Part shown: positions 4,544 through 32,964 of the stretch, piece after piece
How the letters are laid out: every line of letters starts with the position of its first letter
Position numbering within the stretch: position 1 is the stretch's first letter
Assembly: GCA_028723425.1 (NCBI GenBank)
Contig: JAQYEZ010000014.1
Span: forward strand, 1-50,313
Length of the DNA stretch: 50,313 nt
From: Peptoniphilaceae bacterium
GTDB lineage: Bacteria; Bacillota; Clostridia; Tissierellales; Peptoniphilaceae
Direction: 5' to 3'
Notes under the pieces: generated by a model
Databases searched by the model: none
What the model saw: the letters and a program-made list of their open reading frames with translations, nothing else
Told to the model about the DNA's origin: nothing
Program-made: the position numbers and the translations under genes

Positions 4544-10893
<6,350 letters not shown>

Positions 10894-10917
10894 CACATCT
10901 CCTCTAATCAGCAAAAA

Positions 10918-14746: not shown

Positions 14747-15985
14747 TTATCTAACCAATTGGTTAGGCAGAGTGACTATTTCTGTTCTATTTTGATCAAA
14801 ATGAATGTCCTGATTCAAAGAAGCAAAACTAACAGAATTTTTCCCATACTTTTTTCTAATCTTATAAAGGGTCAAATCTAGGCTCTCTTTTTTCAAAAAT
14901 TTTTCATAATCTTCAAGCATATCAAGTTGAATAGGTGTTTTATCAGAAATAAGGTTTATCCCTCTAAGGCCTACTGCCCTAACTGGCAAATGCCAAGTGT
15001 ATCTTTTTAAAAAAAGCTTGATAGCCTTTTGAGCAAGAATTATGGAAGCATTGGTTGGTTGATCTAAGCTAACTTGAAATTCTTGAGAAAGAAGTTTAGA
15101 ATCCCTTACATAAACTTGTATACCACAAGCCTTTAAACCATTTTCTCTAAGTCGTTTTGATACTGAAAAAGAAAGAGATTGAAAAACGTGAAAAACTTCT
15201 TCAAAGTTAGACAAATCCTTGCTACAAGTAGTAGAATTTCCTATAGACTTTATAGGCTCCATATGATTAAAATCATTGACCTTTGCCGTATTTAGGCCTC
15301 TTGCATTTATACAAAGTTTTACTCCTATAAGGCCAAACATAGATTTCATAAGATCTATAGGAGCCATAGCCAAATCTTTTAGGCAAAAAATCCCTATAGC
15401 ATTTAACTTTCTTTTTGTAGCAGGGCCAACTCCTACCATAGCTTCTACTGGAAGTGGCCAGACTATATCCCTAAAATTCTTTTTACTTATAACAGTTAAA
15501 CCATCAGGCTTCTTATAATCTGAACCAAGTTTGGCAAATATTTTATTAAAAGATACCCCTACGCTTACAGTGATACCAAGTTCACTTTTTATTCTTTCCT
15601 TAATCTCATAGCCTATATCTTCTCCACTTCCAAACAGATGAACAGAACCAGTCACATCAAGAAAACACTCATCCAGACCAAAAGGCTCAACTTGATTAGT
15701 GTAGTCATAATAAATTTTTTTTGCCATCCTAGAATGGATAAGATACTGGTCATAATGTGGATTAACTACAACAAGATCAGGGCACTTGTTTTTTGCCTGC
15801 CAAATAGCGTCTCCTGTCTTTACTCCAAAGGACTTTGCTTCTTGAGATTTAGCCAAAATTATACCATGCCTATTTTCTACATTTCCAGCTACAGCCAAAG
15901 GAAGGCCTCTTAGCTTTGGGTTTAATTTTGCCTCTATAGAAGCATAACAACTATTCATATCAGAATGTAAAATTACTCTTTCCAT
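14747..15985 (-). CDS. Y-family DNA polymerase (DinB/UmuC/UvrX type)
   Basis: 412 aa translesion polymerase. Metal ligands are seen as D9 (HSDMNSCYAS) and D105-E106 (GLDECFLD); GVSFNKIFAKLGSDYKKPDG and GVGPATKRKLNAIGI are the thumb and helix-hairpin-helix parts, followed by a little-finger domain. The C-terminus ends PNQLVR and lacks a clear QLxLF beta-clamp motif. AAGGAG precedes the ATG. It is divergently transcribed from an XRE repressor and ImmA-type protease with shared operators in the 125-bp gap, which suggests damage-inducible control without LexA. Whether it is closer to DinB or to UvrX cannot be told by eye. Confidence 0.92.
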   Translation of the reverse strand: MERVILHSDMNSCYASIEAKLNPKLRGLPLAVAGNVENRHGIILAKSQEAKSFGVKTGDAIWQAKNKCPDLVVVNPHYDQYLIHSRMAKKIYYDYTNQVEPFGLDECFLDVTGSVHLFGSGEDIGYEIKERIKSELGITVSVGVSFNKIFAKLGSDYKKPDGLTVISKKNFRDIVWPLPVEAMVGVGPATKRKLNAIGIFCLKDLAMAPIDLMKSMFGLIGVKLCINARGLNTAKVNDFNHMEPIKSIGNSTTCSKDLSNFEEVFHVFQSLSFSVSKRLRENGLKACGIQVYVRDSKLLSQEFQVSLDQPTNASIILAQKAIKLFLKRYTWHLPVRAVGLRGINLISDKTPIQLDMLEDYEKFLKKESLDLTLYKIRKKYGKNSVSFASLNQDIHFDQNRTEIVTLPNQLVR

Positions 15986-16023
15986 AAAAAACTCCTTGAT
16001 TTATACTGTCTAGTAATGTATAA

Positions 16024-16043
16024 TTAAGACAGTTAATGACTAA
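16024..16043. promoter_or_regulatory. Operator, copy 1, in the dinB/XRE divergent region
   Basis: TTAAGACAGTTAATGACTAA. It matches copy 2 (16081-16100) at 18 of 20 positions and lies 38 bp before dinB, where the dinB promoter must be. A looser third copy may lie at 16005-16020 (ACTGTCTAGTAATG). No GAAC-N4-GTTC LexA box is present in the gap. Confidence 0.65.
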
Positions 16044-16080
16044 GAATATGATAAGTCTTTTATCGTCTTTTGTCAAATAT

Positions 16081-16100
16081 TTAAGACTGTTAATGTCTAA
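16081..16100. promoter_or_regulatory. Operator, copy 2, just upstream of the XRE gene
   Basis: TTAAGACTGTTAATGTCTAA, with an AGAC-N7-GTCT inverted repeat at its core. It directly abuts the AAAGGAG of the repressor gene, so binding would block that gene's own transcription (autoregulation). Confidence 0.65.
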
Positions 16101-16110
16101 AGGAGTGAAT

Positions 16111-16506
16111 ATGAGTTTTGGAAAAAAAGTAAGAGAGCTAAGAGAGATCAAAGGTTATACCCAAGAAGAACTAGCAAAAAAAGTAGGTGTTTCTCTTAAA
16201 ACCATATCAAGATATGAGTCAGGAGAATCAAAACCTCGTTATAGAAAGACATACGATATGCTTGCTGAAGTTTTAAACACTACCCACGATCATTTAGTTA
16301 CAGATGAAGAAAACTTCATCCTATCTGCCAGGGAAAAATATGGAGCCCAAGGAGCCAAAGATGCAGAAGAAATGATTAACGGAGTAATAGGTCTTATGGC
16401 TGGTGGAGAACTTCCAGAAGAAGACAAAAGAGCAATATTAGATGCTATCCAAGAAGCTTACTATATTGCAAAAATGGAAAACAAAAAATATAGTCCAAAA
16501 AAATAA
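16111..16506 (+). CDS. XRE-family repressor (ImmR/DdrO-like)
   Basis: 131 aa. Residues about 6-60 are a Cro/C1-type helix-turn-helix (VRELREIKGYTQEELAKKVG, then SLKTISRYESGESKP). The C-terminal 65 residues are helical and lack a peptidase domain, as in ImmR and DdrO, repressors that are cleaved by a separate ImmA/IrrE protease. The ATG at 16111 is chosen for its AAAGGAG; the frame opens upstream through the operator, which cannot be coding. The ImmA-like gene follows after 6 bp. Probable targets are the two operators before it and dinB. Confidence 0.88.
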   Translation: MSFGKKVRELREIKGYTQEELAKKVGVSLKTISRYESGESKPRYRKTYDMLAEVLNTTHDHLVTDEENFILSAREKYGAQGAKDAEEMINGVIGLMAGGELPEEDKRAILDAIQEAYYIAKMENKKYSPKK

Positions 16507-16512
16507 GTAGCT

Positions 16513-17052
16513 ATGTCTATATCCTATGATCAAATTTATAAAGACAGCCAAAAAATCATAGAAAAATTTGCCACAAGGGATCCTAAAGAGATACTAGAAG
16601 CAAAAAATGTTAAAATTATACCATTTTCAACAAAAACTAAAATACTTGGCATGTTTAAAATAATAAAAAGAAATTCTTTTGTTTTCTATAATCCTTATGT
16701 CGACAAAAGAATACAAAATATGGTATTTGCCCATGAGCTTGGACATGAAATCTACCATAAAGATAGGGCAAAGGGCCTAGATCTTATGGAATATGAGCTA
16801 TTTGATATTAATTCAGAAATGGAACTAGAAGCAAATATCTTTGCCTGCCATCTTTTAATAGATGAAGAAAAACTTATGGAAGATATAAAACAAGGCTATA
16901 CCTATTATCAACTAGCATCTTTATATGATGTAAATGTAAATCTTATGATTTTTAAATTAAACGAAATGCATAGAATGGGGCTTCCAATAAAAAAAGAAAA
17001 TCCCGCTGACCCTAAATTCTTTAAAGATATAGAGAAAGGTTACTACTATTGA
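16513..17052 (+). CDS. ImmA/IrrE-family metallopeptidase
   Basis: 179 aa. The zinc motif HELGH is at residues 74-78 and the third ligand is in ELEANIFA (Glu106), the arrangement of the ImmA/IrrE (COG2856) family. Known members cleave an adjacent XRE repressor: ImmA cuts ImmR on ICEBs1 and IrrE cuts DdrO in Deinococcus after DNA damage. The adjacent repressor and divergent polymerase fit that role here; cleavage itself is inferred. The ribosome site is weak, so it is probably made at low level or by coupling. Confidence 0.88.
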   Translation: MSISYDQIYKDSQKIIEKFATRDPKEILEAKNVKIIPFSTKTKILGMFKIIKRNSFVFYNPYVDKRIQNMVFAHELGHEIYHKDRAKGLDLMEYELFDINSEMELEANIFACHLLIDEEKLMEDIKQGYTYYQLASLYDVNVNLMIFKLNEMHRMGLPIKKENPADPKFFKDIEKGYYY

Positions 17053-17597
17053 TAGATAATACAAAAGAATTGGTAAGAAAAATCCTAATAGAAGAAGGCA
17101 AAAGAAATGGTTATGTTTTAGATATGACTTGTGGAAAAGGCTATGATTCCAAATTTATTTTGGAAAATTTAAGTCCAAAAAAACTATACGCCTTTGACAT
17201 CCAAGAACTATCCAAAGAATTTACAGAAAAAACCTTAGGTAGCTTTAAGGAAAATTTTGTTTTTATTTTAGATAATCACAAAAATTTAGATTTATATGTT
17301 AAAGAAGAAATTGACCTTGCTATCTTTAATCTGGGTTATCTGCCAAGTTCTGATAAAACCATTACTACAAATTACAAAGATGTTATAGAAGCTTTGGAAA
17401 AAATATTAAAAAAACTTACCAAAAATTCTATGATAATAATAACATTCTACCCAGGCCATCCCTCTGGCAAAGAAGAGTATATATATGTGGGAAAATACCT
17501 AAAAAATCTTTCCCAACAACAATACTCTATAATTAAATATGACTTTATCAACCAAAAAAATGATCCCCCACTAGTCGTAAAAATTATAAAAAAATGA
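17049..17597 (+). CDS. SAM-dependent methyltransferase of the YtqB/rRNA-methylase-like family
   Basis: 182 aa Rossmann-fold methyltransferase: LDMTCGKGYDS is the SAM-binding loop, YAFDIQ follows, and FNLGYLPSSDK is the motif IV region typical of the small YtqB-like (PF06962) family. The substrate is unknown; YtqB relatives act on tRNA wobble uridine derivatives. It starts with TTG overlapping the ImmA stop (TTGA) behind AAAGG, so it is the third gene of the XRE-ImmA operon. Confidence 0.8.
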   Translation: MIDNTKELVRKILIEEGKRNGYVLDMTCGKGYDSKFILENLSPKKLYAFDIQELSKEFTEKTLGSFKENFVFILDNHKNLDLYVKEEIDLAIFNLGYLPSSDKTITTNYKDVIEALEKILKKLTKNSMIIITFYPGHPSGKEEYIYVGKYLKNLSQQQYSIIKYDFINQKNDPPLVVKIIKK

Positions 17598-21388: not shown

Positions 21389-21534
21389 TACCTCCGCTTA
21401 TGCGGATAAAACTCATCATTTGTTAAAATGTGATTTGATACTAAAGGATCACCCCCGCTTATGCGGATAAGCCAAAAAGCTAGCCCTCTAATCTTTTTTT
21501 AAGTTGGGATCACCACCGCTTACGCGGATAAAGA
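21385..21534 (-). CRISPR. Eroded CRISPR remnant with three repeats
   Basis: Degenerate copies of the main repeat at 21385-21412, 21446-21473 and 21507-21534, each with the CCGCTTA(T/C)GCGGATAA core. They still keep exact 33-bp spacers and a 61-bp period. Changes at the repeat ends (for example GATAAGCC and GATAAAGA in place of GATAAAAC) show decay. This is the old, trailer end of an array now split from the main one by two small genes. Confidence 0.9.
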
Positions 21535-21564
21535 GTACAAAATAAAATTAGTTACAAGTGCATA

Positions 21565-21780
21565 TTAATTTAATACTTCTATATTTGAAATATCAGGTGT
21601 ATTAATATCATAATATTTATATGGAGTTTCAAGGCTAATGCTTTCAATTTCAGGTTCATTATCTCCCGGTTTAATGTAAAGGTTAAAAATCCCCATATAT
21701 TCTTTATTCCTACAATCTTTTACTTTTACTTTTTTATTATAAAATTTCTTTAAATTTTCAAACCCAATATAATTATTCAT
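21565..21780 (-). CDS. Small protein of unknown function between CRISPR remnants
   Basis: 71 aa behind a good AAGGAG. The protein is charged and likely a small beta-rich fold (KKVKVKDCRNKEYMGIFNLYI reads as strands); it ends with a DISNIEVL tail. No signal, no membrane segment, no family I recognise. It lies between an eroded three-repeat CRISPR fragment and an orphan repeat, so it entered or survived in array debris. An immunity- or antiphage-type cargo protein is possible but unsupported. Confidence 0.6.
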   Translation of the reverse strand: MNNYIGFENLKKFYNKKVKVKDCRNKEYMGIFNLYIKPGDNEPEIESISLETPYKYYDINTPDISNIEVLN

Positions 21781-22107
21781 TTTTTAAGCTCCTTAAATGT
21801 TCTTAATGTTGGTATTATATATGATATCCATTTTTAGAATAATGAATTATAGCTCTATTTGTTTCTATTATAGAATTTGTTGCTTCATTAAATATCTATC
21901 TTTAACTTATCATCTTTAATTAATTCTATTTATCAAGTTTTACTTTTGCCTATAAGCTCGCCTTTTCATCTATTATTTTTAAATGAATTTCTTGTTTGCT
22001 TACTTTTAGTATATTAAAATTATTATTGTCAAGAATATATTTTCAAAAACGTTTTTTTTATATAGATTTCTATTTCTTTTAACAGGACCTAAATTATATA
22101 GTTTAAA
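21781..22107. other. Gene-free A/T-rich gap
   Basis: No open frame with a start and ribosome site, no RNA gene and no strong repeat. A 20-codon protein-like tail (NILKVSKQEIHL) can be read leftward around 21955-22020, too short to call. The stretch 22136-22221, past the orphan repeat, also shows nothing. Confidence 0.5.
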
Positions 22108-22135
22108 ATTATTCCGCCGCTTACGTGGATAAAAC
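22108..22135 (-). CRISPR. Orphan CRISPR repeat
   Basis: A single decayed copy, ATTATTCCGCCGCTTACGTG followed by GATAAAAC, matching the right two-thirds of the array repeat. It has no partner at 61 bp on either side. Confidence 0.8.
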
Positions 22136-22221
22136 TTAACTACGCTCTTTAGGGAATTTCATCCCAGCCTTAGAACATACCCGTCATACAAAAAAGCGAT
22201 TATAACTTTTGTCATTATTGA

Positions 22222-22518
22222 TTACTTATATATTTCCATATACTTTTTTAAAACATTATAAGGATCATCTACAAAATAAAATTTTCCACCTTTTGAACTA
22301 CCATCTGCAGGTCTAGGCTCTTTTAGATTATAAATATAATCTTCATCGCTATCATCGACTACTTTCAACATTCCTGCTTTATCTCTAACTATATCATATA
22401 ATTTGTCGTTAGTTAAACCATCTACACCAAATGTTTCCCCGATATATTTAACCTTGCCAATATATTCTAATGGTATTGATTTTTTTAATTCACATTGAAA
22501 TACATTTATAGTTTTCAT
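22222..22518 (-). CDS. Conserved small SH3-like hypothetical protein
   Basis: 98 aa. The central part YIGETFGVDGLTNDKLYDIV, then VVDDSDEDYIYNLKEPRP and DGSSKGGKFYFVDD, has the pattern of a short beta-barrel hypothetical family that I have seen in Firmicutes, often in accessory islands; no function is known to me. The start is ATG 22518 with a moderate AAAGGT. It lies between an orphan repeat and the trailer end of the main array. Confidence 0.65.
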   Translation of the reverse strand: MKTINVFQCELKKSIPLEYIGKVKYIGETFGVDGLTNDKLYDIVRDKAGMLKVVDDSDEDYIYNLKEPRPADGSSKGGKFYFVDDPYNVLKKYMEIYK

Positions 22519-22546
22519 TCTCTATTTTTACCTTTATAATTAAATT

Positions 22547-22690
22547 TTATCTCATACTGATTAAGATTTTTTCGTACCAATGAACATAATAATAAAATTT
22601 ATCAGAATTAATTTTTCCAACGTTTTTTCCAATTTTTCTGCAATTCCTCCATAGAGATTATATAACCTTTAGATATCTCTTATTTCTTGT
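22547..22690 (-). pseudogene. Frameshifted gene remnant beside the array trailer
   Basis: Coding-like peptides in two frames, MEELQKNWKK then KINSDKFYYYVHWYEKIL, can be joined by a frameshift near 22620 and end at TAA 22549-22547. There is no intact frame. It resembles debris of a small cytosolic protein gene; identity unknown. Confidence 0.35.
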
Positions 22691-22718
22691 CCACTAAATA
22701 TAGTTTTTGTATTCTCTA

Positions 22719-23539
22719 GGATCATAACCGCTTACGCGGATAAAACAGCTTTAAAATATATGAATCTTTTCTAGACTTGGGATCACCCCCGCTTACGCGG
22801 ATAAAACAAAATAAACTTTTCAACTTCATCCCAAACTATAGGATCACCCCCGCTTACGCGGATAAAACCTTTATCTCCATTCATCTTTTCACATAGAGCA
22901 GGGATCACCCCCGCTTACGCGGATAAAACATGGTAATACCAAGTCTTTACCTTTGTTATCTAGGATCACCCCCGCTTACGCGGATAAAACCTTTATCTCC
23001 ATTCATCTTTTCACATAGAGCAGGGATCACCCCCGCTTACGCGGATAAAACTTATAAAGGGTTTTTCTTTCCTTTTCTTTGTTAGGATCACCCCCGCTTA
23101 CGCGGATAAAACCACTCTTGCTTCAAGTTCTAATTCGCGCCTATAGGATCACCCCCGCTTACGCGGATAAAACTTTCCTTCTGATACTAAGCCGTTAAGC
23201 CAAATAGGATCACCCCCGCTTACGCGGATAAAACTGAACGAATAATGGAGTAAATAAATGATTACCAGGATCACCCCCGCTTACGCGGATAAAACGATTT
23301 TCAAATTCGCCCTTTATTGTTTTCTTTGGGATCACCCCCGCTTACGCGGATAAAACCACGCCGTGAAGAGTGGATGGCAACCCAAGCTAGGATCACCCCC
23401 GCTTACGCGGATAAAACGGCCCGCATAAGGTCCGGAAAAGCTTCCGGCAAGGATCACCCCCGCTTACGCGGATAAAACTTCTTTAGCCGTGGTATAATAA
23501 ATATGTGGATAGGATCACCCCCGCTTACGCGGATAAAAC
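22719..23539 (-). CRISPR. Type I-E CRISPR array, 14 repeats and 13 spacers
   Basis: Fourteen 28-bp repeats with a strict 61-bp period (33-bp spacers). Read leftward, the repeat is GTTTTATCCGCG-TAA-GCGGGGGTGATCC, a classic I-E palindrome form close to those of streptococcal I-E arrays. The copy at 22719-22746 is changed (CATAACCGC for CACCCCCGC), marking the trailer; the leader is on the cas2 side. Spacers at 22869-22901 and 22991-23023 are identical. Two of the leader-proximal spacers (23357-23389, 23418-23450) are more GC-rich than the host. Array transcript is on the same strand as cas genes. Confidence 0.98.
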
Positions 23540-23572
23540 ACTAAACAATTGCATAAATTTAGCTATTGTTTA
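23540..23572 (-). promoter_or_regulatory. Very short CRISPR leader with inverted repeat
   Basis: Only 23 bp separate the cas2 stop from the first repeat. Within 23542-23572 TAAACAATTGC pairs with GCTATTGTTTA (10 of 11), spanning the cas2 stop codon. Integration signals and any array promoter must therefore overlap the end of the cas2 coding sequence. Confidence 0.5.
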
Positions 23573-24483
23573 TTTAGATCCTCTAAAAATTTCCCCACTT
23601 TGGTTGAAAGCTCATAGGTTAATTTTGCATCTTCTAGCGCCCTATGAGGTTGGTCTTTTTCTATCTGGTATTGTTTTAAAATGTTTGAAAGTTTGTATGA
23701 TGATAGATATTTTTTCTCTTTTTTTACATAGACTAGTAAATCATATTTTTTATTTTTTATTTGAGATTTTCCCATTTGCCTTAATGCCATATTTATAAAC
23801 TTCAGATCAAAGTCTAAATTATAAGCTACTATAGGAGCATCTTCTATAAATTTTATAAATTCTTCCATTACATTTTCAAGATCTCTACCTTCGTTTTTTA
23901 TCAGTGTATCATCTATTTTGGTCAATTCTCTTATTTGTTTAGGTATTGGTTTATAAGTTTTTACCAAGCTTTGAAAATAGTTTATCTTATCTTCTTCTAT
24001 TTTTACAGCCCCTATTTCTATTATTTTATTCTTTTTATAGTCAAGTCCATCTGTTTCTATATCTATGATAACATATGGTTTTGATTTTTGATTATATTTT
24101 GTATTTAAATTGGAATTTTTTCTTCCAGAATATTTATGAGAATTTCTAAGTTTAGCTTGCTTACTAAAGCCTAATTTGTATTTTTGATCTTCTTGTTTTT
24201 CTTGATCTTCTTTTATTAGGATAAGTGGTAGTCCATCATAGTCTATAGCTTTTCTTTTTGTATTTATAGTATCAAATTTATAGCCTATTTCATTTCTATA
24301 GGAATAGGATATAGTTGCTTGACCGTCTCCAATATTTTCTCTTATCCTATTCCATAGCTTTTCTCTAACTTTTGTATTAAAGTTTCCAACATATACTCCA
24401 CTTGCTATTTCCTGCATCCATTTGCTTAAATCTCCTCTTAAAGAGTTTGTTACATTGGTTAAGGTTACTACTGTTAGTGGCAA
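23563..24483 (-). CDS. cas2: Cas2 fused to a DnaQ-like 3'-5' exonuclease (type I-E)
   Basis: 306 aa. Residues 1 to about 95 are I-E-type Cas2 (MPLTVVTLTNVTNSLRGDLSKW, split here from one stretch: LRGDLSKWMQEIASGVYVG). After a charged linker of about 40 residues comes a DEDDh exonuclease: DIETDG (Asp141, Glu143), AYNLDFDLKF, HRALEDAKL. Fusions of this kind are known in streptococcal I-E systems, where the exonuclease trims prespacers before integration. The start is a TTG at 24483, preceded by AGAAGGTGATT inside the end of cas1; the upstream in-frame ATG has no such site. Stop lies 23 bp from the first repeat. Confidence 0.93.
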   Translation of the reverse strand: MPLTVVTLTNVTNSLRGDLSKWMQEIASGVYVGNFNTKVREKLWNRIRENIGDGQATISYSYRNEIGYKFDTINTKRKAIDYDGLPLILIKEDQEKQEDQKYKLGFSKQAKLRNSHKYSGRKNSNLNTKYNQKSKPYVIIDIETDGLDYKKNKIIEIGAVKIEEDKINYFQSLVKTYKPIPKQIRELTKIDDTLIKNEGRDLENVMEEFIKFIEDAPIVAYNLDFDLKFINMALRQMGKSQIKNKKYDLLVYVKKEKKYLSSYKLSNILKQYQIEKDQPHRALEDAKLTYELSTKVGKFLEDLNKQ

Positions 24484-24484
24484 T

Positions 24485-25426
<942 letters not shown>

Positions 25427-26059
25427 CTAATCTGCCACTTTTATCACAGTCATTAAACCACAACCATAAGCTTTTTTCTTGCCAAAACCTTGGGTTAAAC
25501 TTCTATAAAATAGGTCCTTGTCAGTAACTGTTAATAGGCCTTCATAGGTTACTTTACTTAGATTTACCAACTTTTTCCCCTCTTTTTTTAAGGGTACAAA
25601 TTTTCTTTCCACTATAGCAAAGTCTTCAAGCTTTAGTTTGAAACCATTTTTTTCGCTTCTTTCTAATAAAAAGTTTGCCTGATCATAATAATTTAGGAGT
25701 GGATATACTCGGCCCCTCTTGGATATTTCTTCTTTTCTAGAAACAATAGGATTTAAAGTCACCCTAAATCTCATCTTATCTCCTTGATTTATAGTGGAAA
25801 GATATTTATCATAGGATTTAAACCTTGCTGTTGATTTTACTCCAAATTTTTCCAATTTATTGATATCTGGACTATTCTCACTTACTATAATAAGATATTT
25901 TCTACCATTTATTTTATCAATTCTCCAAAGCTTTCTGCTTCTTTTTCCTTCTTCATCAGGAAAACTATCCTCAACCCAAGAATGGTAGACTCCAAGATGA
26001 CTTAATTCTTTCATTTTTTTCCTATTGTTAAGATCTATTTCTACTTGTGATATATACAT
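25427..26059 (-). CDS. cas6e: Cas6e crRNA-processing endoribonuclease (Cse3)
   Basis: 210 aa, two ferredoxin-like folds. MYISQVEID is the signature N-terminus, His26 in GVYHSWVED is the expected catalytic His region, and the C-terminal glycine-rich loop is LTQGFGKKKAYGCGLM. It cuts the array transcript within the repeat hairpin. AAGGAG precedes the ATG; 2 bp separate it from cas5e. Confidence 0.95.
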   Translation of the reverse strand: MYISQVEIDLNNRKKMKELSHLGVYHSWVEDSFPDEEGKRSRKLWRIDKINGRKYLIIVSENSPDINKLEKFGVKSTARFKSYDKYLSTINQGDKMRFRVTLNPIVSRKEEISKRGRVYPLLNYYDQANFLLERSEKNGFKLKLEDFAIVERKFVPLKKEGKKLVNLSKVTYEGLLTVTDKDLFYRSLTQGFGKKKAYGCGLMTVIKVAD

Positions 26060-26061
26060 AT

Positions 26062-26766
26062 TTACTCCTTAACATTTTCAAAAATATCATGATCTGTATC
26101 TTGAAGTTTTTCTATATTTATATCTATCCTAGCTTCACTTCTATTTTTAAAGATTCTTTCTTTTTTTGAAAAAGAAAGGACCCTATCTTTTCTCATTTCG
26201 CTATAGGATAAATTTTCATTCTCATCAATTAAATCTTTATCTGCATATATAGATAAATTTGATAAATGCGTATCCTTGTACCATTTTTGGGCAAGCCATG
26301 GATAAGTCTTTAAGTTTTGAATTGGTCCGTAATTATTTTTTTCTATAAAGAAATCGGCATTTATTGGAACAGACTTTCTGCCCAAGAATAATTGATAGTA
26401 TGGATTTTTTAGAGCATACTCTATTTTCTCCATCAAATCTTCATCATTTGAACCGATAGCTACAAGAAAAATACTATCTTCCAAATAATATCTATCCGTT
26501 AAATATACATTTTTCTTATTATATTCATGTCTTGCTACTTGGAAATCTTTTGTAACAGCTCCTATTTGATCAACCCTTAAAGCAAAATCAATTTTGTTTA
26601 ATTCTTGAATTTCTTTATCTTGGTCTCTCTTGTAGCCAAAAGCTGCAGCAAGCATACCTATTAGAGCAGATTTTGAAGGATGAAGATCAGTATGTCTGAT
26701 ATTAAAATGAGAATTTGTGCCCCAAGATTGTAAAGGAGATGCAAATTTCAATAAAATCGTTGACAT
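26062..26766 (-). CDS. cas5e: Cas5e Cascade subunit (CasD)
   Basis: 234 aa. The N-terminus MSTILLKFASPLQSWG and HPSKSALIGMLAAAFG are diagnostic of Cas5e; FLGRKSVPI is a further conserved patch. It caps the 5' handle of the crRNA in Cascade. Start at 26766 preferred: GGAG precedes it and it sits one base after the cas7e stop (TAATATG), whereas the ATG 12 bases upstream has no ribosome site. Confidence 0.95.
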   Translation of the reverse strand: MSTILLKFASPLQSWGTNSHFNIRHTDLHPSKSALIGMLAAAFGYKRDQDKEIQELNKIDFALRVDQIGAVTKDFQVARHEYNKKNVYLTDRYYLEDSIFLVAIGSNDEDLMEKIEYALKNPYYQLFLGRKSVPINADFFIEKNNYGPIQNLKTYPWLAQKWYKDTHLSNLSIYADKDLIDENENLSYSEMRKDRVLSFSKKERIFKNRSEARIDINIEKLQDTDHDIFENVKE

Positions 26767-26767
26767 A

Positions 26768-27841
26768 TTATTCTCCATCTTCTTCTAATTTTTCATCTAT
26801 TTCTGTTTTTAAACCTTCTAAAAGTTTAGTTAAAGATTCCTCTTCTTTAATATCAGATTTTGTATTTTCAGTTGTTACATATGAAGCAAATATAGGCTTT
26901 TGGGTAAATTTTTCTACCTTGTAATATTCATCAAATAATTTTTCTATGGATTTTTCTACATAGCCATCTGTTGACCTTACTGGTTTTTCAAAAGCACTTA
27001 CAAGATTAACTGGCCTATCTTCTCTTAAAGTTACCAAGACTAGCTGTGGTAATGTTTGGTTTGCAAAAGTATTTACTTTGCCTGTTGGAAGAGATTTTAC
27101 AAAGGCCTCTACAAATAATTGTAAGGTATTTATTGTAGCTTTCTTATCTTTTAATTGTTTAAACAAGTCGTGAACAGCAACATTTGCATAACGATATAGT
27201 GTTGATGAATTAAATTCTATAGTGCCAAGCATGCCAGCTCCTACATTTGATTGATCATTAGAAAAGTCATCTATAGCTGTATAGAAATCAAATTCTTGGT
27301 CTATTGGGTGAGTTGAAATTGCATGAGCAACTTGAGATGATGCTTCTTCGTTCAAATTTGAATCATCTGCTACCATTCTTCCGAAAAGAGCAATATCTAT
27401 AGCTGGATTTTCTTTTAAGATATCTTTTAAAACTTTCTTATCTTCTTTTTCTAGACTTGCCTTTGCCAATCTTTCTGCTTGAGTATTGCCCAAAAAGAAT
27501 AAAGCCTTAGCCTTTTGATTTGCAGTTTTTACTCCAGCATCATTTATGGTCTTCTCTGCTAATTTCATTGCTTCTTCATAAGAAATTGATGAGTCTATTT
27601 CCCTTATTTTTCTTGCTAGATAGTCAACTATATTTAAAGTTCTTACCCCAACATTTAAAGACTCAGAATTTTCTTTAAAATAATCTCTCATGGCTTTTTT
27701 CCAAGCTTGTGAAGATACTCTGGCTCTTCTTACTCCACCGTATTGGGCAGTTTTTGGTGATCCTGTATCATCCCTATTGATATTTGATGGTGGTAATGTT
27801 TGTATTGCATGTACATCTAAAAATAAGTTACTCTTCTTCAT
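26768..27841 (-). CDS. cas7e: Cas7e Cascade backbone subunit (CasC/Cse4)
   Basis: 357 aa. The N-terminus LDVHAIQTLPPSNINRDDTGSPKTA and GGVRRARVSSQAWKKAMR are typical Cas7e sequences (shown in parts), with GAGMLGTIEFNSSTLYRYA in the middle. Six copies coat the crRNA spacer. GGAGAAA precedes the ATG, which lies 14 bp inside cse2. Confidence 0.96.
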   Translation of the reverse strand: MKKSNLFLDVHAIQTLPPSNINRDDTGSPKTAQYGGVRRARVSSQAWKKAMRDYFKENSESLNVGVRTLNIVDYLARKIREIDSSISYEEAMKLAEKTINDAGVKTANQKAKALFFLGNTQAERLAKASLEKEDKKVLKDILKENPAIDIALFGRMVADDSNLNEEASSQVAHAISTHPIDQEFDFYTAIDDFSNDQSNVGAGMLGTIEFNSSTLYRYANVAVHDLFKQLKDKKATINTLQLFVEAFVKSLPTGKVNTFANQTLPQLVLVTLREDRPVNLVSAFEKPVRSTDGYVEKSIEKLFDEYYKVEKFTQKPIFASYVTTENTKSDIKEEESLTKLLEGLKTEIDEKLEEDGE

Positions 27842-28439
27842 TTTCTTCTCCTTTTTCTATCTTCTTAAAACTATAATAATTCCTTGACCACTTTAATCTA
27901 ATACTTTCTTGGTAGCCTAGCAAATAATAGAACAAATCTTCTGCAAGTTTTGCATAGGAAACCTTTGCTTGATTTTTCTTTTTAGCTTTTAAAAGGCTAA
28001 CCATTTGCCTTAAATAATGTGAAAATTCTTCATAAGTTGATGCTGTGATCATCGCATTAAATCTTCTATCTATTGCTTTACTATCTTCTACATCTCTTAG
28101 AATTTTAAGAGAATAGCCCATATTTTGCCATCTGTTCTCCTCATCCGTAAGAACACTTTCAGATATGCCTTGTTGATGAAGTGCATATAATTGTAGACTT
28201 GTTATTATTGCCAATTCTTCTTTACTTAATTTAGAACTATTGCCCAAAAATTCTTCAGGCATATTTTCAAAAATAAAGGCAAAAGCATCCATATTATCTA
28301 CAAGTGGCTTATTTATAGAATTTCTTAGATTAGCTAGAGTAGCCTTTTTTAAAGGCTCATTTTTCATAGTATCTAATTTTATCAAAATTCTACTTGCAAC
28401 TGCATATAGGCTGGTCCTTTTGTTAATTTTTTCATCCAT
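27828..28439 (-). CDS. cse2: Cse2 Cascade small subunit (CasB/Cas11e)
   Basis: 203 aa, all helical. RFNAMITASTYEEFSHYLRQMVSLL is the most conserved stretch (given in parts: RRFNAMITAS, HYLRQMVSLL). As a dimer it stabilises the R-loop. It overlaps cse1 by 8 bp and cas7e by 14 bp. Weak sequence conservation is normal for this subunit; position supports the call. Confidence 0.92.
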   Translation of the reverse strand: MDEKINKRTSLYAVASRILIKLDTMKNEPLKKATLANLRNSINKPLVDNMDAFAFIFENMPEEFLGNSSKLSKEELAIITSLQLYALHQQGISESVLTDEENRWQNMGYSLKILRDVEDSKAIDRRFNAMITASTYEEFSHYLRQMVSLLKAKKKNQAKVSYAKLAEDLFYYLLGYQESIRLKWSRNYYSFKKIEKGEENEEE

Positions 28440-30165
28440 TTTTCTTCTCCAATAATTTCAGATCGTTATTGATATTATATTCAAAACGATTATAAGCTAT
28501 AGCAACATTTAATAATTCTTCTTTTTCTACTCCTTTTACTCTCCTTTTTACCTCTCTACCCTTATAGTCTCTTGGTGTAGATTTTTCCAAAACAAATTCT
28601 GCTTCTTTTGTAACAATATCATATAATTTTTTTCTCCATTCAAATATTTTCTCATCCTTATCATCATCGTATTTGATACTTATTAACCAATCCCTAAAAG
28701 GTCTATCTACCAAAAAATACATCTTTTCAATACTTTTATCTATAAAACTACCAGTCTTATCATTTCTTATTAGAGAAAGATCTGTCAAAAAGTTTTTATA
28801 TACAAAATCTATTATTCTTTTGGTTTGATCCACTGTTAAATTAATATAAGTAGTCCAATTATTTTTATCCAAATCAGTCAATATGAATTGTCTGAGATTT
28901 AAGTTATCATAAGTTTGATCTGTAGGTCTCCAGGATGTTGCATTTTTATCATCTTGCATACTTATACTATTTACAGTTACCTTATAATCTCCTATTATTT
29001 CTTTTATTTTTTCAAGCCATGCAATTAGACCTGGTCTTTTGTATCTATGCTCGCTACTTTCTGGTGTATCTGTGACCAAAAGTCCAAAAGATCTCCATAA
29101 ATATTGGTTAGGATTGTGTTTTTTTGGAGTATAGAAGTCTTTATTTTCACCTTGATTATTAAATCTCCAAACTGTCATCGGTTCAAAAAAATATGATCTA
29201 TGGTCTAAATCAGGCATTTTTACAGCATACATATAAAATGGCTTATCTTCTGTAAAGTCTAAATCTATATTTATGGCTCTAGACCAGTTTGTATATAACT
29301 GACTTAGATTATCTGGATTTAAGCCCAAAAATGCCAAGTCAACATATTCTATACCGCTGTATTCCCAGCAAGGTTTTTGAATATTATTTTCCCCATCATC
29401 TATACCTTGCCTATCTAGAATAAGATTTAACATTAGAGTTTCAAACAAATTATTTCCTTCTAAATAAATACCTCCCAAATCAAAAATCCAGCCTTTAGAT
29501 TTTTTATATTCTTCTCTCTTAAAAACTGTCTTATCTGATAAGCCCGAATAGCCTTGAAAAGTAATTATCCATCTAGCAATTTCTGCATAAGTCATAATGT
29601 CCTTAGCCTTATTTTGAGAATATTTTGGAGAAAATAAAGATGTCTTATTTTCGCTTTCTGAAATCAATCTATTTATATTTTTACCAAAAATTTTTCCAGG
29701 CTCTTTTTTATTTATCTTATCAGCAGAAATATCCTCATACAAAACTTGATAGAATGGGTATTTTTCATCAATAAGATTAAAGTGATCTTTCCATTTTAAT
29801 AAATAATCTTTAATTATTGGAGGAAACTCTCCTTTAATCCAAAGTTTTTGCCAAGTATCAAAAAGTTCTATGCTGTAATCATCTTGGTCTTCTTCATCGT
29901 AAATAACATTTGTTTGAAAATATCTTTGATCAAGTTTTATTTGTGGATAGTTCTTACCATCTGCATCAAAGCGGGAAAAAACTGTGTGCAAAACAGCAAG
30001 CAAGACTCTCATAAGTGCAAAATCTTGAGTTTTGGAATCCCCTGCTAAGCCCAAATACTTGTGAGCATTTTCAAATACTTCTATTAAAGATACATCCTCA
30101 CTTGTACCTTTTTGATCACTAATAACCGATATCCATTTTTCTTCTAGTAAATTATATAGTCCCAC
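28432..30165 (-). CDS. cse1: Cse1 Cascade large subunit (CasA/Cas8e)
   Basis: 577 aa. It recognises the PAM and recruits Cas3. The N-terminal NLLEEKWISV and GDSKTQDFALMRVLLAVLH match the family, as do LFSPKYSQNKAKDI and WRSFGLLV. It starts with GTG directly after the cas3 TGA (AAAGGAT upstream) with no gap, so the two are coupled. Confidence 0.95.
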   Translation of the reverse strand: MGLYNLLEEKWISVISDQKGTSEDVSLIEVFENAHKYLGLAGDSKTQDFALMRVLLAVLHTVFSRFDADGKNYPQIKLDQRYFQTNVIYDEEDQDDYSIELFDTWQKLWIKGEFPPIIKDYLLKWKDHFNLIDEKYPFYQVLYEDISADKINKKEPGKIFGKNINRLISESENKTSLFSPKYSQNKAKDIMTYAEIARWIITFQGYSGLSDKTVFKREEYKKSKGWIFDLGGIYLEGNNLFETLMLNLILDRQGIDDGENNIQKPCWEYSGIEYVDLAFLGLNPDNLSQLYTNWSRAINIDLDFTEDKPFYMYAVKMPDLDHRSYFFEPMTVWRFNNQGENKDFYTPKKHNPNQYLWRSFGLLVTDTPESSEHRYKRPGLIAWLEKIKEIIGDYKVTVNSISMQDDKNATSWRPTDQTYDNLNLRQFILTDLDKNNWTTYINLTVDQTKRIIDFVYKNFLTDLSLIRNDKTGSFIDKSIEKMYFLVDRPFRDWLISIKYDDDKDEKIFEWRKKLYDIVTKEAEFVLEKSTPRDYKGREVKRRVKGVEKEELLNVAIAYNRFEYNINNDLKLLEKKNG

Positions 30166-32934
30166 TCATTGTATCCTTTCTAATTTTTTTATTTTTAAGC
30201 CGTATTTTTCGCTATATATAAGTTTAAAATCTCCAATTATAAATTCATTATTTTCATCAAATATTATGCCAAGACTTCCCTTTAACCAAGCTTGGTCCTG
30301 CCATACTTTTAAATATTTTAAATTATATTTTTCCAAATTTTCTATAGTTTTGTCTATATTATAAATATTGGATAAAATCGTTGGCAATTTTAAGCTATTA
30401 TTAGCAATCTTTTTTGCTATCTTATTTTCATTTATTCTCTCTGAAATATCCTTATCTTCTCCAAAGATACCATAGCCCTTGCCAATCTTTTTTAAAGCTA
30501 TAACTTCTATAGTGTCATTTGAATCTCTTACTTGTGCATTTGCTTTTTCTTCTGTTTTTAAAATAGCATCTCCTTGAAGCCAATCCACCATGGTTTTTTC
30601 CCTGCGATTTTTCCTTTGACTTAAAAGATATACTTTTGCCTTTGCCTTTTTCTTTTCTTTGAAAACCTCATCTTCTCGCAGAAAATCTTCATATTTATTA
30701 TTTAATTCATAACTTAAATCCAATTTATCATCTGAGTAAACTTTCTGAACTAGTTTTGATATATCTGAAGGAATTTCAATTTTTTCCGGCAAATAATACT
30801 GACTTCTTGCAAGTATATAGGCACCGTAAACAGCAAGGGAACCTTTTTCAAAATCAAAATCTTTGTTCATACACCCTACATAAACTACAGGTTCCTTGTA
30901 GGCCAAAGGTCTATCTTCTCTTTGGTGTCTATGAAGTCTTCCAATCCTTTGAATCATCAAATCCATTGGAGCAAGATCTGTTATCAATACGTCAAAGTCA
31001 ATGTCTATTGATTGTTCAATCACCTGAGTTCCTATGATTATTTTTTTCTTAGGTCTTTTTCCTCCTTTACCAATCATATCTAGCAAAGCTTTTTCTTTTT
31101 TTGCTCTTTGGGTCGCTATAAAATTTGAGTGAAGTAGGTCTACCCTATCCTCTCCAAAAATATCAGCACATTTTTCTGCTAATTCTTGAGATTTTTTTAC
31201 AGTATTTACAATTACGCCAATAATTCCATCCTTTTTTGACAATTCTTCTATCAATGGCAAAAGATCATCTGAATAATATTTTTCTATGCTTATAATCTTT
31301 GCTTGACCTTGTGAAAAATCAGTATATTGCTTTATATCCTCTCCGTCCGTATAGGAAATTAAGGGATAAGCATCTTTTGATAAATTTTTACGCTTTTCTT
31401 TAATATCAGTCTTACGAACTCCCATGCCCAAAAGGTAGGCTTGTAACATCTCTTCTCTTTTTTCAGCAGGAAGAGTTGCAGAAAGCAAAATCACTGGAAC
31501 TTGATATGAGCCAAGCCATCTTATAGACTCTAGTAGGTATTGATCCATATAGATATCATAGGCATGTACCTCATCTATAACTACAACTTTTTTATCAAAA
31601 CCCAAATGCCTTAAAGCTACGTGTTTTTGCTTTAAAGACATTAATAAAAACTGATCTACAGTTCCAATAACAAAATCATCAAGAGAAGTTTTCTTTCTAC
31701 CAGCAAACCATTCATTGATTACAACCGTCTGATTTTCTAACTCTTTATCTGTTAGATCTATATTTACATTTGAAGAAAGAGAAATAAAATCCTCATTTAA
31801 TGAAGCCTTACCATGGGCAAGCCTTATACCATGTTTCTTGTCCAAATCAGCATCTATTTTCTCTAACCAATCTTCTATTCTAGGAAATATAGCATTTGAT
31901 GTAGCCTGGGTGGGCAAGCCAAAAAACAAGCCACTCCTATTTGTCTTATAAGCTAGTTCTTCTACTCCTATAAGGGCTGACTCAGTCTTTCCCATGCCCA
32001 TAGGTGCTTCAAAAATAAAAATTCCTGGAGCACTTGTATTATAGATAACTTTTTCAAATTTCTCTTGTGCTTGTCTAGGAGAAAAACCAAAGCGAATTTT
32101 AAATATATTTTCTCCTAAATTATTTTCTATATCAAAAACATCTTCTGCCTGCCAAGTAGTAGAAGTGGCCCACTTTTCATAAGCTTTAATAGGTCTACTA
32201 TCTTTATTTATAACTTCGGCTTCATCGATATTAATAAGAGGAAAATAATTATTATTGGATGCTATCCAGTCTGCCATAATCAAAAGTGCTGATAAAATTA
32301 TTTGTGTGTTTTTTGGTATAGGTGGTAGATCTTTGAGATTTTCAAAGCCATTATCAATTAAGGCACTTTCTATAATTTCTTCTTGAACTTTTTTCCAAAG
32401 TTTATAATCTAAATCTTCTGGATTTTCGACCTTATAGTAATTGCTAATTAAAGATTTTTGTTGAATTATTTGACTTTTTGAAGGAGGTTTACCATGATGT
32501 GAACCTACTATACTAGCAAGATCTTCTCCAAAGCCATTCCAAACAAGTATCATCTGCCCTGCCAAGGCATGGAAAGTTTTCTCAGCAAAAGAAAGACTTT
32601 TATCAAAATCTCTAAATCCTGCCATTCTTAACTTTTCCATCAAAGAGTATTCTAAGTCTTCTGTAGAAAAATTCGTTTTGGTTGTCTGAAAATTATATGT
32701 AGCCTTACCAAGATCGTGAATTTGACATAAAAATGTAAATAATTTCTTACTATCATCTTGGTCAAAAAACCCGAGTTCTTCACTAATTCTAAATTTCTGA
32801 CCTTGACTTAACCAGTTCTCCCACAACAAAGCTCCTATATCTCTGGTGTCAATCAAGTGTTGGTAAAGTGATAGCCATTTATTCGATACTTCTCCTACTT
32901 CTTTTTTTGCCCATAAATATTTGCTCATTTCCAT
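30166..32934 (-). CDS. cas3: Cas3 helicase-nuclease (type I-E)
   Basis: 922 aa. An N-terminal HD nuclease (LCQIHDLGKATYNF with His73-Asp74; VGSHHGKPP) is followed by an SF2 helicase: Walker A APMGMGKTES, DEVH box VVIDEVHAYD, motif III LLSATLP, motif VI IQRIGRLHRH, and a C-terminal accessory domain. It shreds DNA unwound from Cascade-marked targets. The ATG at 32934 follows AAAGGTGAT. It is the first gene of the operon, downstream of an extended -10 promoter overlapped by a cre site. Confidence 0.97.
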   Translation of the reverse strand: MEMSKYLWAKKEVGEVSNKWLSLYQHLIDTRDIGALLWENWLSQGQKFRISEELGFFDQDDSKKLFTFLCQIHDLGKATYNFQTTKTNFSTEDLEYSLMEKLRMAGFRDFDKSLSFAEKTFHALAGQMILVWNGFGEDLASIVGSHHGKPPSKSQIIQQKSLISNYYKVENPEDLDYKLWKKVQEEIIESALIDNGFENLKDLPPIPKNTQIILSALLIMADWIASNNNYFPLINIDEAEVINKDSRPIKAYEKWATSTTWQAEDVFDIENNLGENIFKIRFGFSPRQAQEKFEKVIYNTSAPGIFIFEAPMGMGKTESALIGVEELAYKTNRSGLFFGLPTQATSNAIFPRIEDWLEKIDADLDKKHGIRLAHGKASLNEDFISLSSNVNIDLTDKELENQTVVINEWFAGRKKTSLDDFVIGTVDQFLLMSLKQKHVALRHLGFDKKVVVIDEVHAYDIYMDQYLLESIRWLGSYQVPVILLSATLPAEKREEMLQAYLLGMGVRKTDIKEKRKNLSKDAYPLISYTDGEDIKQYTDFSQGQAKIISIEKYYSDDLLPLIEELSKKDGIIGVIVNTVKKSQELAEKCADIFGEDRVDLLHSNFIATQRAKKEKALLDMIGKGGKRPKKKIIIGTQVIEQSIDIDFDVLITDLAPMDLMIQRIGRLHRHQREDRPLAYKEPVVYVGCMNKDFDFEKGSLAVYGAYILARSQYYLPEKIEIPSDISKLVQKVYSDDKLDLSYELNNKYEDFLREDEVFKEKKKAKAKVYLLSQRKNRREKTMVDWLQGDAILKTEEKANAQVRDSNDTIEVIALKKIGKGYGIFGEDKDISERINENKIAKKIANNSLKLPTILSNIYNIDKTIENLEKYNLKYLKVWQDQAWLKGSLGIIFDENNEFIIGDFKLIYSEKYGLKIKKLERIQ

Positions 32935-32964
32935 AAATATCACCTTTACTAATATATGCAGTGG

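What the first reader, a model, noticed from the sequence alone, without database searches (positions are those of the whole stretch)
14747..17597. Candidate LexA-independent damage response: XRE repressor, ImmA/IrrE protease and divergent Y-family polymerase
Sequence: a 131-aa XRE protein without peptidase domain, then an ImmA/IrrE metalloprotease (HELGH), divergent from a translesion polymerase, with two 20-bp operators 18/20 identical in the 125-bp gap and no LexA-type box. Knowledge: ImmA cleaves ImmR on ICEBs1; IrrE cleaves DdrO in Deinococcus upon damage. Inference: here the same switch, with no integrative element visible, controls mutagenic repair in a Firmicute, with a methyltransferase as a third member.
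Basis: partly seen in the sequence, partly recalled or inferred. Interest (0 to 1): 0.78.

Follow-up and report, generated by a model that had tools for sequence, protein, structure and literature searches.

The report
LexA-free protease switch for mutagenic polymerase
In Anaerococcus, a genus in which no copy of the usual DNA-damage repressor LexA was found, an error-prone DNA polymerase gene sits beside a small repressor and a protease gene that look like a private on-off switch for it, a layout also seen in related bacteria and gut phages.

Summary
In detail: a Y-family polymerase (dinB) divergent from an XRE repressor and an ImmA/IrrE protease (HELGH), with at least three related operators in the 125-bp gap. 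The methyltransferase is MnmM, probably a bystander. Comparison supports the core idea. No LexA DNA-binding domain was found in 28 Anaerococcus genomes; 16 of 16 genomes from other families of the order have it. The XRE-ImmA pair is in 21 of 21 Anaerococcus examined, beside dinB in 19. An operator fills the 17-bp spacer of the dinB promoter in 18 of 19. One Anaerococcus whose dinB moved to another contig keeps such operators there. LexA boxes occur at 9 of 9 dinB promoters in relatives where no chromosomal pair of this type was found, and at 0 of 42 in genomes with the pair. The module recurs in phages and, with UmuC, in other bacteria and on a plasmid. The regulon looks private, though the scan was partial. 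Damage induction and XRE cleavage are inferred from ImmR-ImmA, CapH-CapP and DdrO-IrrE, not tested. Verdict: new variant of a known kind (proteolytic XRE switch), aimed at mutagenic polymerases.

The parts
14747..15985 (-). dinB: 412-aa Y-family DNA polymerase (Pol IV type), proposed target gene
   Evidence: PF00817 E 2e-42, PF11799 E 2.8e-19; NF002677 just over its cut-off, 257.8 against 256 bits; acidic motifs HSDMNSCYASIE and FGLDECFLDVT intact in the translation (their catalytic role is recalled)
15996..16024 (+). predicted xre-immA promoter: TTGATT, 17-bp spacer, TATAAT
   Evidence: best sigma-70 match on this strand of the 200 bp before xre; a TTG-type -35 and TATAAT 16-17 bp apart in 19 of 21 genus loci, not L011 and L020
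16026..16042 (+). operator O1 (AAGACAGTTAATGACTA), between the -10 boxes of the two divergent promoters
   Evidence: 2 mismatches to the genus consensus AAGWCATTWAATGWCTT
16048..16076 (-). predicted dinB promoter: TTGACA, 17-bp spacer, TATCAT
   Evidence: equivalent promoter found in 18 of 19 dinB-linked Anaerococcus loci
16053..16069 (+). operator O3 (AAGTCTTTTATCGTCTT), filling the spacer of the dinB promoter
   Evidence: 3 mismatches to the consensus
16083..16099 (+). operator O2 (AAGACTGTTAATGTCTA), in the xre leader and upstream of the dinB -35
   Evidence: 3 mismatches to the consensus
16111..16506 (+). XRE repressor, 131 aa; HTH at the N-terminus, two C-terminal helices joined by a short linker (AGGELP)
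   Evidence: PF01381 E 3.5e-14; AlphaFold model, mean pLDDT 86, helices 65-96 and 103-126, lower confidence (67) at residues 91-100
16513..17052 (+). ImmA/IrrE-type metalloprotease, 179 aa, HELGH
   Evidence: PF06114 E 3.5e-13; only M78 match in the own genome; profile matches CapP 7t5t and IrrE 3dte
17049..17597 (+). mnmM, tRNA U34 methyltransferase; overlaps the immA stop, probably a syntenic neighbour and not part of the switch
   Evidence: NF053511 E 4.3e-56; next to immA in 17 of 21 Anaerococcus loci

Best explanation
This is a self-contained damage switch for a mutagenic polymerase. In undamaged cells XRE dimers sit on the operators between and inside the two divergent promoters and hold down both dinB and their own xre-immA operon. 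When DNA damage produces single-stranded DNA, and perhaps RecA filaments, ImmA becomes active and cuts XRE near the linker between its two C-terminal helices, about Leu95-Met96. The dimer falls apart, the operators empty, and DinB and fresh XRE-ImmA are made; new XRE resets the switch. Supported here by sequence comparison: gene order, operators, their match to the XRE recognition helix, operators on a dinB that has moved away, and the absence of LexA. Inferred from known relatives: repression itself, proteolysis, its site, and damage as the signal.
For: LexA_DNA_bind found in 0 of 25 Anaerococcus and in 16 of 16 genomes of other families of the order, and in 0 of 21 Anaerococcus; 28 distinct Anaerococcus together. 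XRE orthologue in 21 of 21 Anaerococcus. HE[LI]GH protease beside XRE in 56 of 57 loci (56 translated; L121, a 36% hit, showed none). A Y-family polymerase beside the pair in 39 of 53 named-genome loci, in three arrangements: divergent dinB, codirectional dinB, downstream umuC (many are the same genomes as). Operator: 41 windows at 3 mismatches or fewer upstream of xre in 21 loci against 0.23 in shuffles, the consensus being drawn from these same loci; in the dinB promoter spacer in 18 of 19. Trans: in Anaerococcus G119 dinB is on another contig yet has two operators, at 4 and 3 mismatches, at its promoter; unlinked dinB and xre promoters share an inverted motif in G119 (P 0.02) and in G015, G047, G067 of one other genus (0 of 60 shuffles each). 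LexA boxes: 9 of 9 against 0 of 42. Outside the training loci, the same operator occurs in 3 of 3 loci whose XRE has the K..R recognition helix (two genera, umuC targets) and in 0 of 6 with R..N/S. XRE model with the ImmR layout (ImmR helices 64-88 and 103-126, cut at F95-M96, PMC8960796, passages).
Against: No binding, induction or cleavage data. Five of 25 named Anaerococcus loci keep xre-immA without an adjacent dinB, G101 has no long dinB at all, and 3 of the 19 adjacent copies are interrupted (G054, G114, G024), so dinB cannot be the only reason to keep the pair. The shared motif was not significant for G021 (P 0.15) or G034 (P 0.42). Strong Peptidase_S24 hits, as in XRE-S24 repressors that RecA might cut, occur in 12 of 21 genomes, the own one included. 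Four of the nine LexA-box dinBs belong to a distant group; G074 is 65% complete and LexA itself was not found there over the cut-off. Five of the 28 LexA-free genomes are 82-91% complete.
Confidence: 0.7

Rival explanations
1. XRE represses dinB and itself, but ImmA responds to something other than DNA damage (zinc release, a peptide, phage entry), so the polymerase is made under a different stress.
For: IrrE in Deinococcus is proposed to be triggered by zinc (PMC7907104, title and start of abstract in the listing; section of PMC8072749) and ImmA of ICEBs1 also by RapI (PMC11841131, passages). ImmA here is a bare 179-aa protease.
Against: Dinb of the same lineage carries LexA boxes, that is, a damage input, in relatives; ssDNA activates both CapP and PprI (PMC10904395, passages).
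Confidence: 0.18
2. The pair is a degenerate or domesticated phage or ICE repressor left beside dinB, with no present role in damage control.
For: Phages and a plasmid carry the same module; several Anaerococcus have lost, moved or interrupted dinB.
Against: Pair kept in 21 of 21 genomes with the protease motif intact; promoter and spacer operator at 18 of 19 linked loci and on a relocated dinB; no mobile-element gene among the 19 window proteins scanned.
Confidence: 0.07
3. XRE-ImmA is a toxin-antitoxin-like or defence pair and dinB is an accidental neighbour.
For: COG2856-XRE pairs have been listed as toxin-antitoxin candidates (PMC2701414, passages).
Against: Two different Y-family polymerase types in three arrangements, in several bacterial families, phages and a plasmid; operators in the dinB promoter spacer.
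Confidence: 0.05

Closest known systems
ImmR-ImmA of ICEBs1 (Bacillus subtilis) and TnSmu1
   Same: Small XRE repressor plus adjacent bare M78 protease; C-terminal two-helix layout, with the ImmR cut site F95-M96 matching L95-M96 by residue number
   Different: Those switches control excision and transfer of a mobile element (PMC10233336, PMC11841131, passages); here the proposed target is a host polymerase gene and no mobile-element gene was recognised nearby
IrrE/PprI-DdrO of Deinococcus
   Same: Metalloprotease that inactivates an XRE repressor of DNA repair genes (PMC8072749 and PMC10904395, passages)
   Different: IrrE chain in the PDB is 301 aa against 179 aa here; DdrO represses many genes, recA among them, here at most a private switch was seen; LexA homologues still exist in Deinococcus
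CapP-CapH of CBASS defence operons
   Same: Best solved match of the protease profile (7t5t, E 6.2e-8); ssDNA-stimulated cleavage of a repressor
   Different: CapH controls an anti-phage operon, not a polymerase
LexA-controlled yqjW/uvrX-yolD polymerases of Bacillus (PMC6511836, passages)
   Same: Damage-controlled Y-family polymerases of Firmicutes; a UmuC-YolD version of the module is on plasmid pRUMAL02
   Different: There the repressor is LexA; here an XRE-ImmA pair is encoded beside the polymerase

Membership tests
ImmR-ImmA type proteolytic repressor pair | XRE protein with HTH and no peptidase domain, adjacent M78 protease with HEXXH | tested here: met
ImmR-ImmA type proteolytic repressor pair | Cut site in a linker between two C-terminal helices | tested here: inconclusive
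   Layout and residue number agree; L95 nearly invariant, A97-G98-G99 invariant in 40 sequences; no cleavage assay, full ImmR not aligned; in the model L95-M96 ends the first helix
ImmR-ImmA type proteolytic repressor pair | Resides on and controls a mobile element | tested here: not met
   No recombinase, relaxase or phage gene among 19 window proteins scanned (the outer window ORFs were not scanned); pair in 21 of 21 Anaerococcus, usually beside dinB and mnmM
ImmR-ImmA type proteolytic repressor pair | Activated by DNA damage or RecA | not testable with these tools
   Needs an experiment
IrrE/DdrO radiation response | Long IrrE with further domains beyond M78 | tested here: not met
   179 aa, one Pfam domain only
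IrrE/DdrO radiation response | Regulon of many repair genes sharing one motif | tested here: inconclusive
   Own genome: 4 places at 2 mismatches or fewer, none but the local one at a recognised repair gene; O2 and O3 have 3 mismatches, so weak sites would be missed; genus scan only partly inspected; weak recA site in 4 of 21
LexA/SOS regulon | LexA present and LexA box at dinB | tested here: not met

The most novel reading that the evidence does not exclude
XRE-ImmA plus a Y-family polymerase is a portable LexA-free 'mini-SOS' cassette, shared by chromosomes, gut phages and plasmids. Control of one and the same dinB lineage has been exchanged between LexA and this cassette, and in Anaerococcus, which lost LexA, the cassette is the only conserved dedicated damage-response regulator that remains.
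Probability: 0.5. Interest if true: 0.78.

Novelty: new variant of a known kind. Interest (0 to 1): 0.62.

Why it matters
How bacteria without LexA turn on mutagenic repair is an open question. This locus offers a compact candidate that can be tested in a reporter strain, with natural controls in hand: relatives whose dinB has LexA boxes, a strain whose dinB moved but kept its operators, and lineages whose operators differ together with the XRE helix. Its presence in phages and on a plasmid suggests that inducible mutagenesis can travel as a small package independent of host LexA.

Tried and rejected
Rejected: MnmM as part of the switch. Not supported: a wider regulon. The genus scan gave 112 forward matches at 2 mismatches or fewer in 21 genomes against 42 for the reversed control. 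Local sites explain roughly 28 if the 21 loci are a guide (a partly different set of genomes), so an excess of non-local matches over the control remains unexplained; the listing was cut. I inspected 22 non-local places: 7, 13, 2 more of the own genome. Of these 19 lie wholly inside ORFs, L261:1980 overlaps an ORF end, and L261:2933 and L275:1501 lie in gaps; L275 (own genome C84:66756, a perfect palindrome before a 167-aa ORF of unknown kind) was not followed. Rejected as genus traits: operator control of recA (3 of 21 loci with a site at 3 mismatches or fewer; a fourth, G103, by eye) and of the second Y-family polymerase (0 of 20 loci).

Unresolved: direction of the LexA/XRE exchange. The DinB tree (55 rows) puts four LexA-box dinBs in one supported clade among XRE-linked clades, but deep branches are open, a fifth (G017) is a long unplaced branch and four others form a distant group. 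Also unresolved: what xre-immA controls where dinB is gone.

Limits: searches used mononucleotide shuffles, shuffled two-base blocks. In one search the best repeat in the dinB-xre gap reached P 0.04 or less in 18 of 28 loci; 10, among them five Anaerococcus-type gaps, did not. The 'spacer-op mm' column is out of register and was not used. One search took 52 of the 57 dinB genomes; G044, G053, G064, G072 and G089 were not taken.

Not obtained: a model of ImmA and a fold search of the XRE model. The XRE job was busy at 37, 48, 51, 54, 60, accepted at 62 and collected at 106.
Full report
What is there. The window is contig C14 of a 1.9-Mb draft genome. dinB (14747-15985, -) stands divergent from a 131-aa XRE (16111-16506, +), followed by an ImmA/IrrE protease with HELGH (16513-17052, +), the only Peptidase_M78 match of the genome. 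The third ORF is MnmM. Purine genes lie on one side (my reading of the ORFs; of these only the purF ORF was scanned). A Rib-domain surface protein and a type I-E CRISPR-Cas locus lie on the other. No integrase, relaxase or phage gene was recognised among the 19 window proteins scanned; the outer window ORFs were not scanned.

Promoter anatomy. Two promoters face each other: xre TTGATT-17-TATAAT (15996-16024) and dinB TTGACA-17-TATCAT (16048-16076, -) (positions counted by me). O1 (16026-16042) lies between the two -10 boxes, O3 (16053-16069) fills the dinB spacer, O2 (16083-16099) lies in the xre leader. In the 200 bp before xre of 21 Anaerococcus loci, the consensus AAGWCATTWAATGWCTT, drawn by eye from these same loci, has 41 windows at 3 mismatches or fewer against a mean of 0.23 in shuffles. 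Of 19 loci with adjacent dinB, 18 have the dinB promoter with at most one mismatch in its two hexamers and GAC/GTC half-sites filling a 17-bp spacer. The exception, L020, has an interrupted dinB; two other interrupted copies (L008, L019) keep the promoter.

Conservation. XRE hits at E 1e-8 or less occur in 84 of 120 genomes of the family, 21 of 21 Anaerococcus among them. In 19 of the 21, dinB is adjacent and divergent; 16 copies are whole and 3 interrupted. In nine further family loci (L026-L034) all nine have an adjacent Y-family polymerase: five divergent dinB, one codirectional dinB, three downstream umuC. Of 22 more (L090-L111), 12 have one and 10 do not, one of them (L095) at a contig end. 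Of 53 named-genome loci, which overlap with these, 39 have one, including Pseudoramibacter and two other Eubacteriaceae (umuC) and a Mageeibacillus MAG (dinB); five of 25 Anaerococcus there do not. Of 57 XRE loci, 56 have an adjacent HE[LI]GH protein (L121 none). Three XRE hits of 36-37% identity were read (L118, L228, L232): L118 has a serine-recombinase-like and a relaxase-like ORF beside it, L232 the former, L228 is a short contig (my reading). I take these as a separate mobile lineage.

LexA. PF01726 finds no LexA in 25 of 25 Anaerococcus and finds it in 16 of 16 genomes of other families of the order. Across the family 74 of 120 genomes have it over the cut-off, 0 of 21 Anaerococcus. Together 28 distinct Anaerococcus, five of them 82-91% complete. 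RecA is present in 21 of 21. Peptidase_S24 hits over 60 bits occur in 12 of 21; the copy of the own genome reads as an HTH-S24 protein (by eye).

Exchange of control. One search found the long dinB in 57 of 120 family genomes; I read the promoter in 52. In nine relatives where no chromosomal pair of this type was found (G074 has a mobile-type pair and G077 a distant one), the dinB promoter has a LexA-box match at 0-4 mismatches, shuffle P 0.015 or less: 9 of 9. In 42 promoters from genomes with the pair (35 linked, 7 unlinked) the best match has 5-7 mismatches: 0 of 42. G062, with LexA and xre-immA-umuC elsewhere, has none either (6). Several genera have LexA and still keep dinB beside the XRE pair, for example G002, G030 and G037, so the pair works beside LexA there and alone in Anaerococcus. 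The tree does not settle the direction.

Trans and specificity tests. A search for shared motifs between unlinked dinB and xre promoters was run on six pairs (G059 was left out): G119 P 0.02; G015, G047, G067, one genus, 0 of 60 shuffles each and above the mispaired controls; G021 P 0.15; G034 P 0.42. At 4 mismatches or fewer the Anaerococcus operator occurs in 20 of the 21 loci from which the consensus was drawn. Of nine outside loci it occurs in the 3 whose XRE helix reads K..R (two genera, umuC targets, P 0.003 or less each) and in 0 of 6 with R..N/S. These are related sequences, not independent draws.

Phages and plasmids. Of 15 phage records with a related XRE, at least nine have dinB beside it (coordinates; one search lists 40 of 96 records); five of the nine have the same scores and are probably near-copies. 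The three XRE-bearing annotated ones that I read are Ca. Heliusvirales. Pfam confirms Y-family, M78 and HTH in phage NatCom_19828. Of 16 viral contigs with a related dinB, eight have a divergent XRE scoring 99 bits or more, some of them near-copies. Plasmid pRUMAL02 has xre-immA-umuC followed by a gene annotated YolD-like; its Pfam match is below the cut-off.

Mechanism. The protease profile matches CapP and IrrE. The XRE profile's best solved match is another regulator (9sf2), then the ImmR HTH and, lower, DdrO; apart from 9sf2 these are HTH matches. The XRE model has helices 65-96 and 103-126. ImmR is described with helices 64-88 and 103-126 and a cut at F95-M96 in the linker (PMC8960796, passages). 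ssDNA activates PprI and CapP (PMC10904395, passages); ImmA of ICEBs1 acts in the RecA-dependent response (PMC11841131, passages). From this I infer ssDNA- or RecA-triggered cleavage of XRE.

Prior work. Ten accepted searches of the open-access library (most listings were capped) showed no paper, in the titles, abstract starts and passages seen, that describes XRE-ImmA control of a Y-family polymerase or a LexA-free damage response in Anaerococcus. PMC8072749 section 4.4 (read) calls COG2856/XRE pairs present in many bacteria, often on transposons and phages. Subscription papers were not searched.

Noticed in passing
window 21391-32943: Type I-E CRISPR-Cas locus (cas3, cse1, cse2, cas7, cas5, cas6, cas1) whose cas2 ORF is fused to a DnaQ-like exonuclease, with a 61-bp-period array.
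   Followed up: partly
window 6007-10914: One 1635-aa ORF that reads as a PurD-PurL fusion; in relative L112 a PurL-like ORF of 1222 aa stands without PurD (family names are my reading, no scan).
   Followed up: no
   Followed up: no
G119 contig C1, near 200475, 263316 and 326157: Three S24 hits with equal scores at an exact 62,841-bp spacing, perhaps a tandem prophage or an assembly artefact.
   Followed up: no
L111 235-2508: In one relative (G019) the gene after immA looks like a RecD2-type helicase instead of a polymerase (my reading).
   Followed up: no
L144-L147: A weak operator-like site between a -10 box and recA in four Anaerococcus (G095, G109, G103, G117), perhaps a recent extension of the switch.
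   Followed up: partly
L275 1501-1517 (own genome C84:66756): A perfect palindromic operator-like site (2 mismatches) in a gap before a 167-aa ORF of unknown kind.
   Followed up: no
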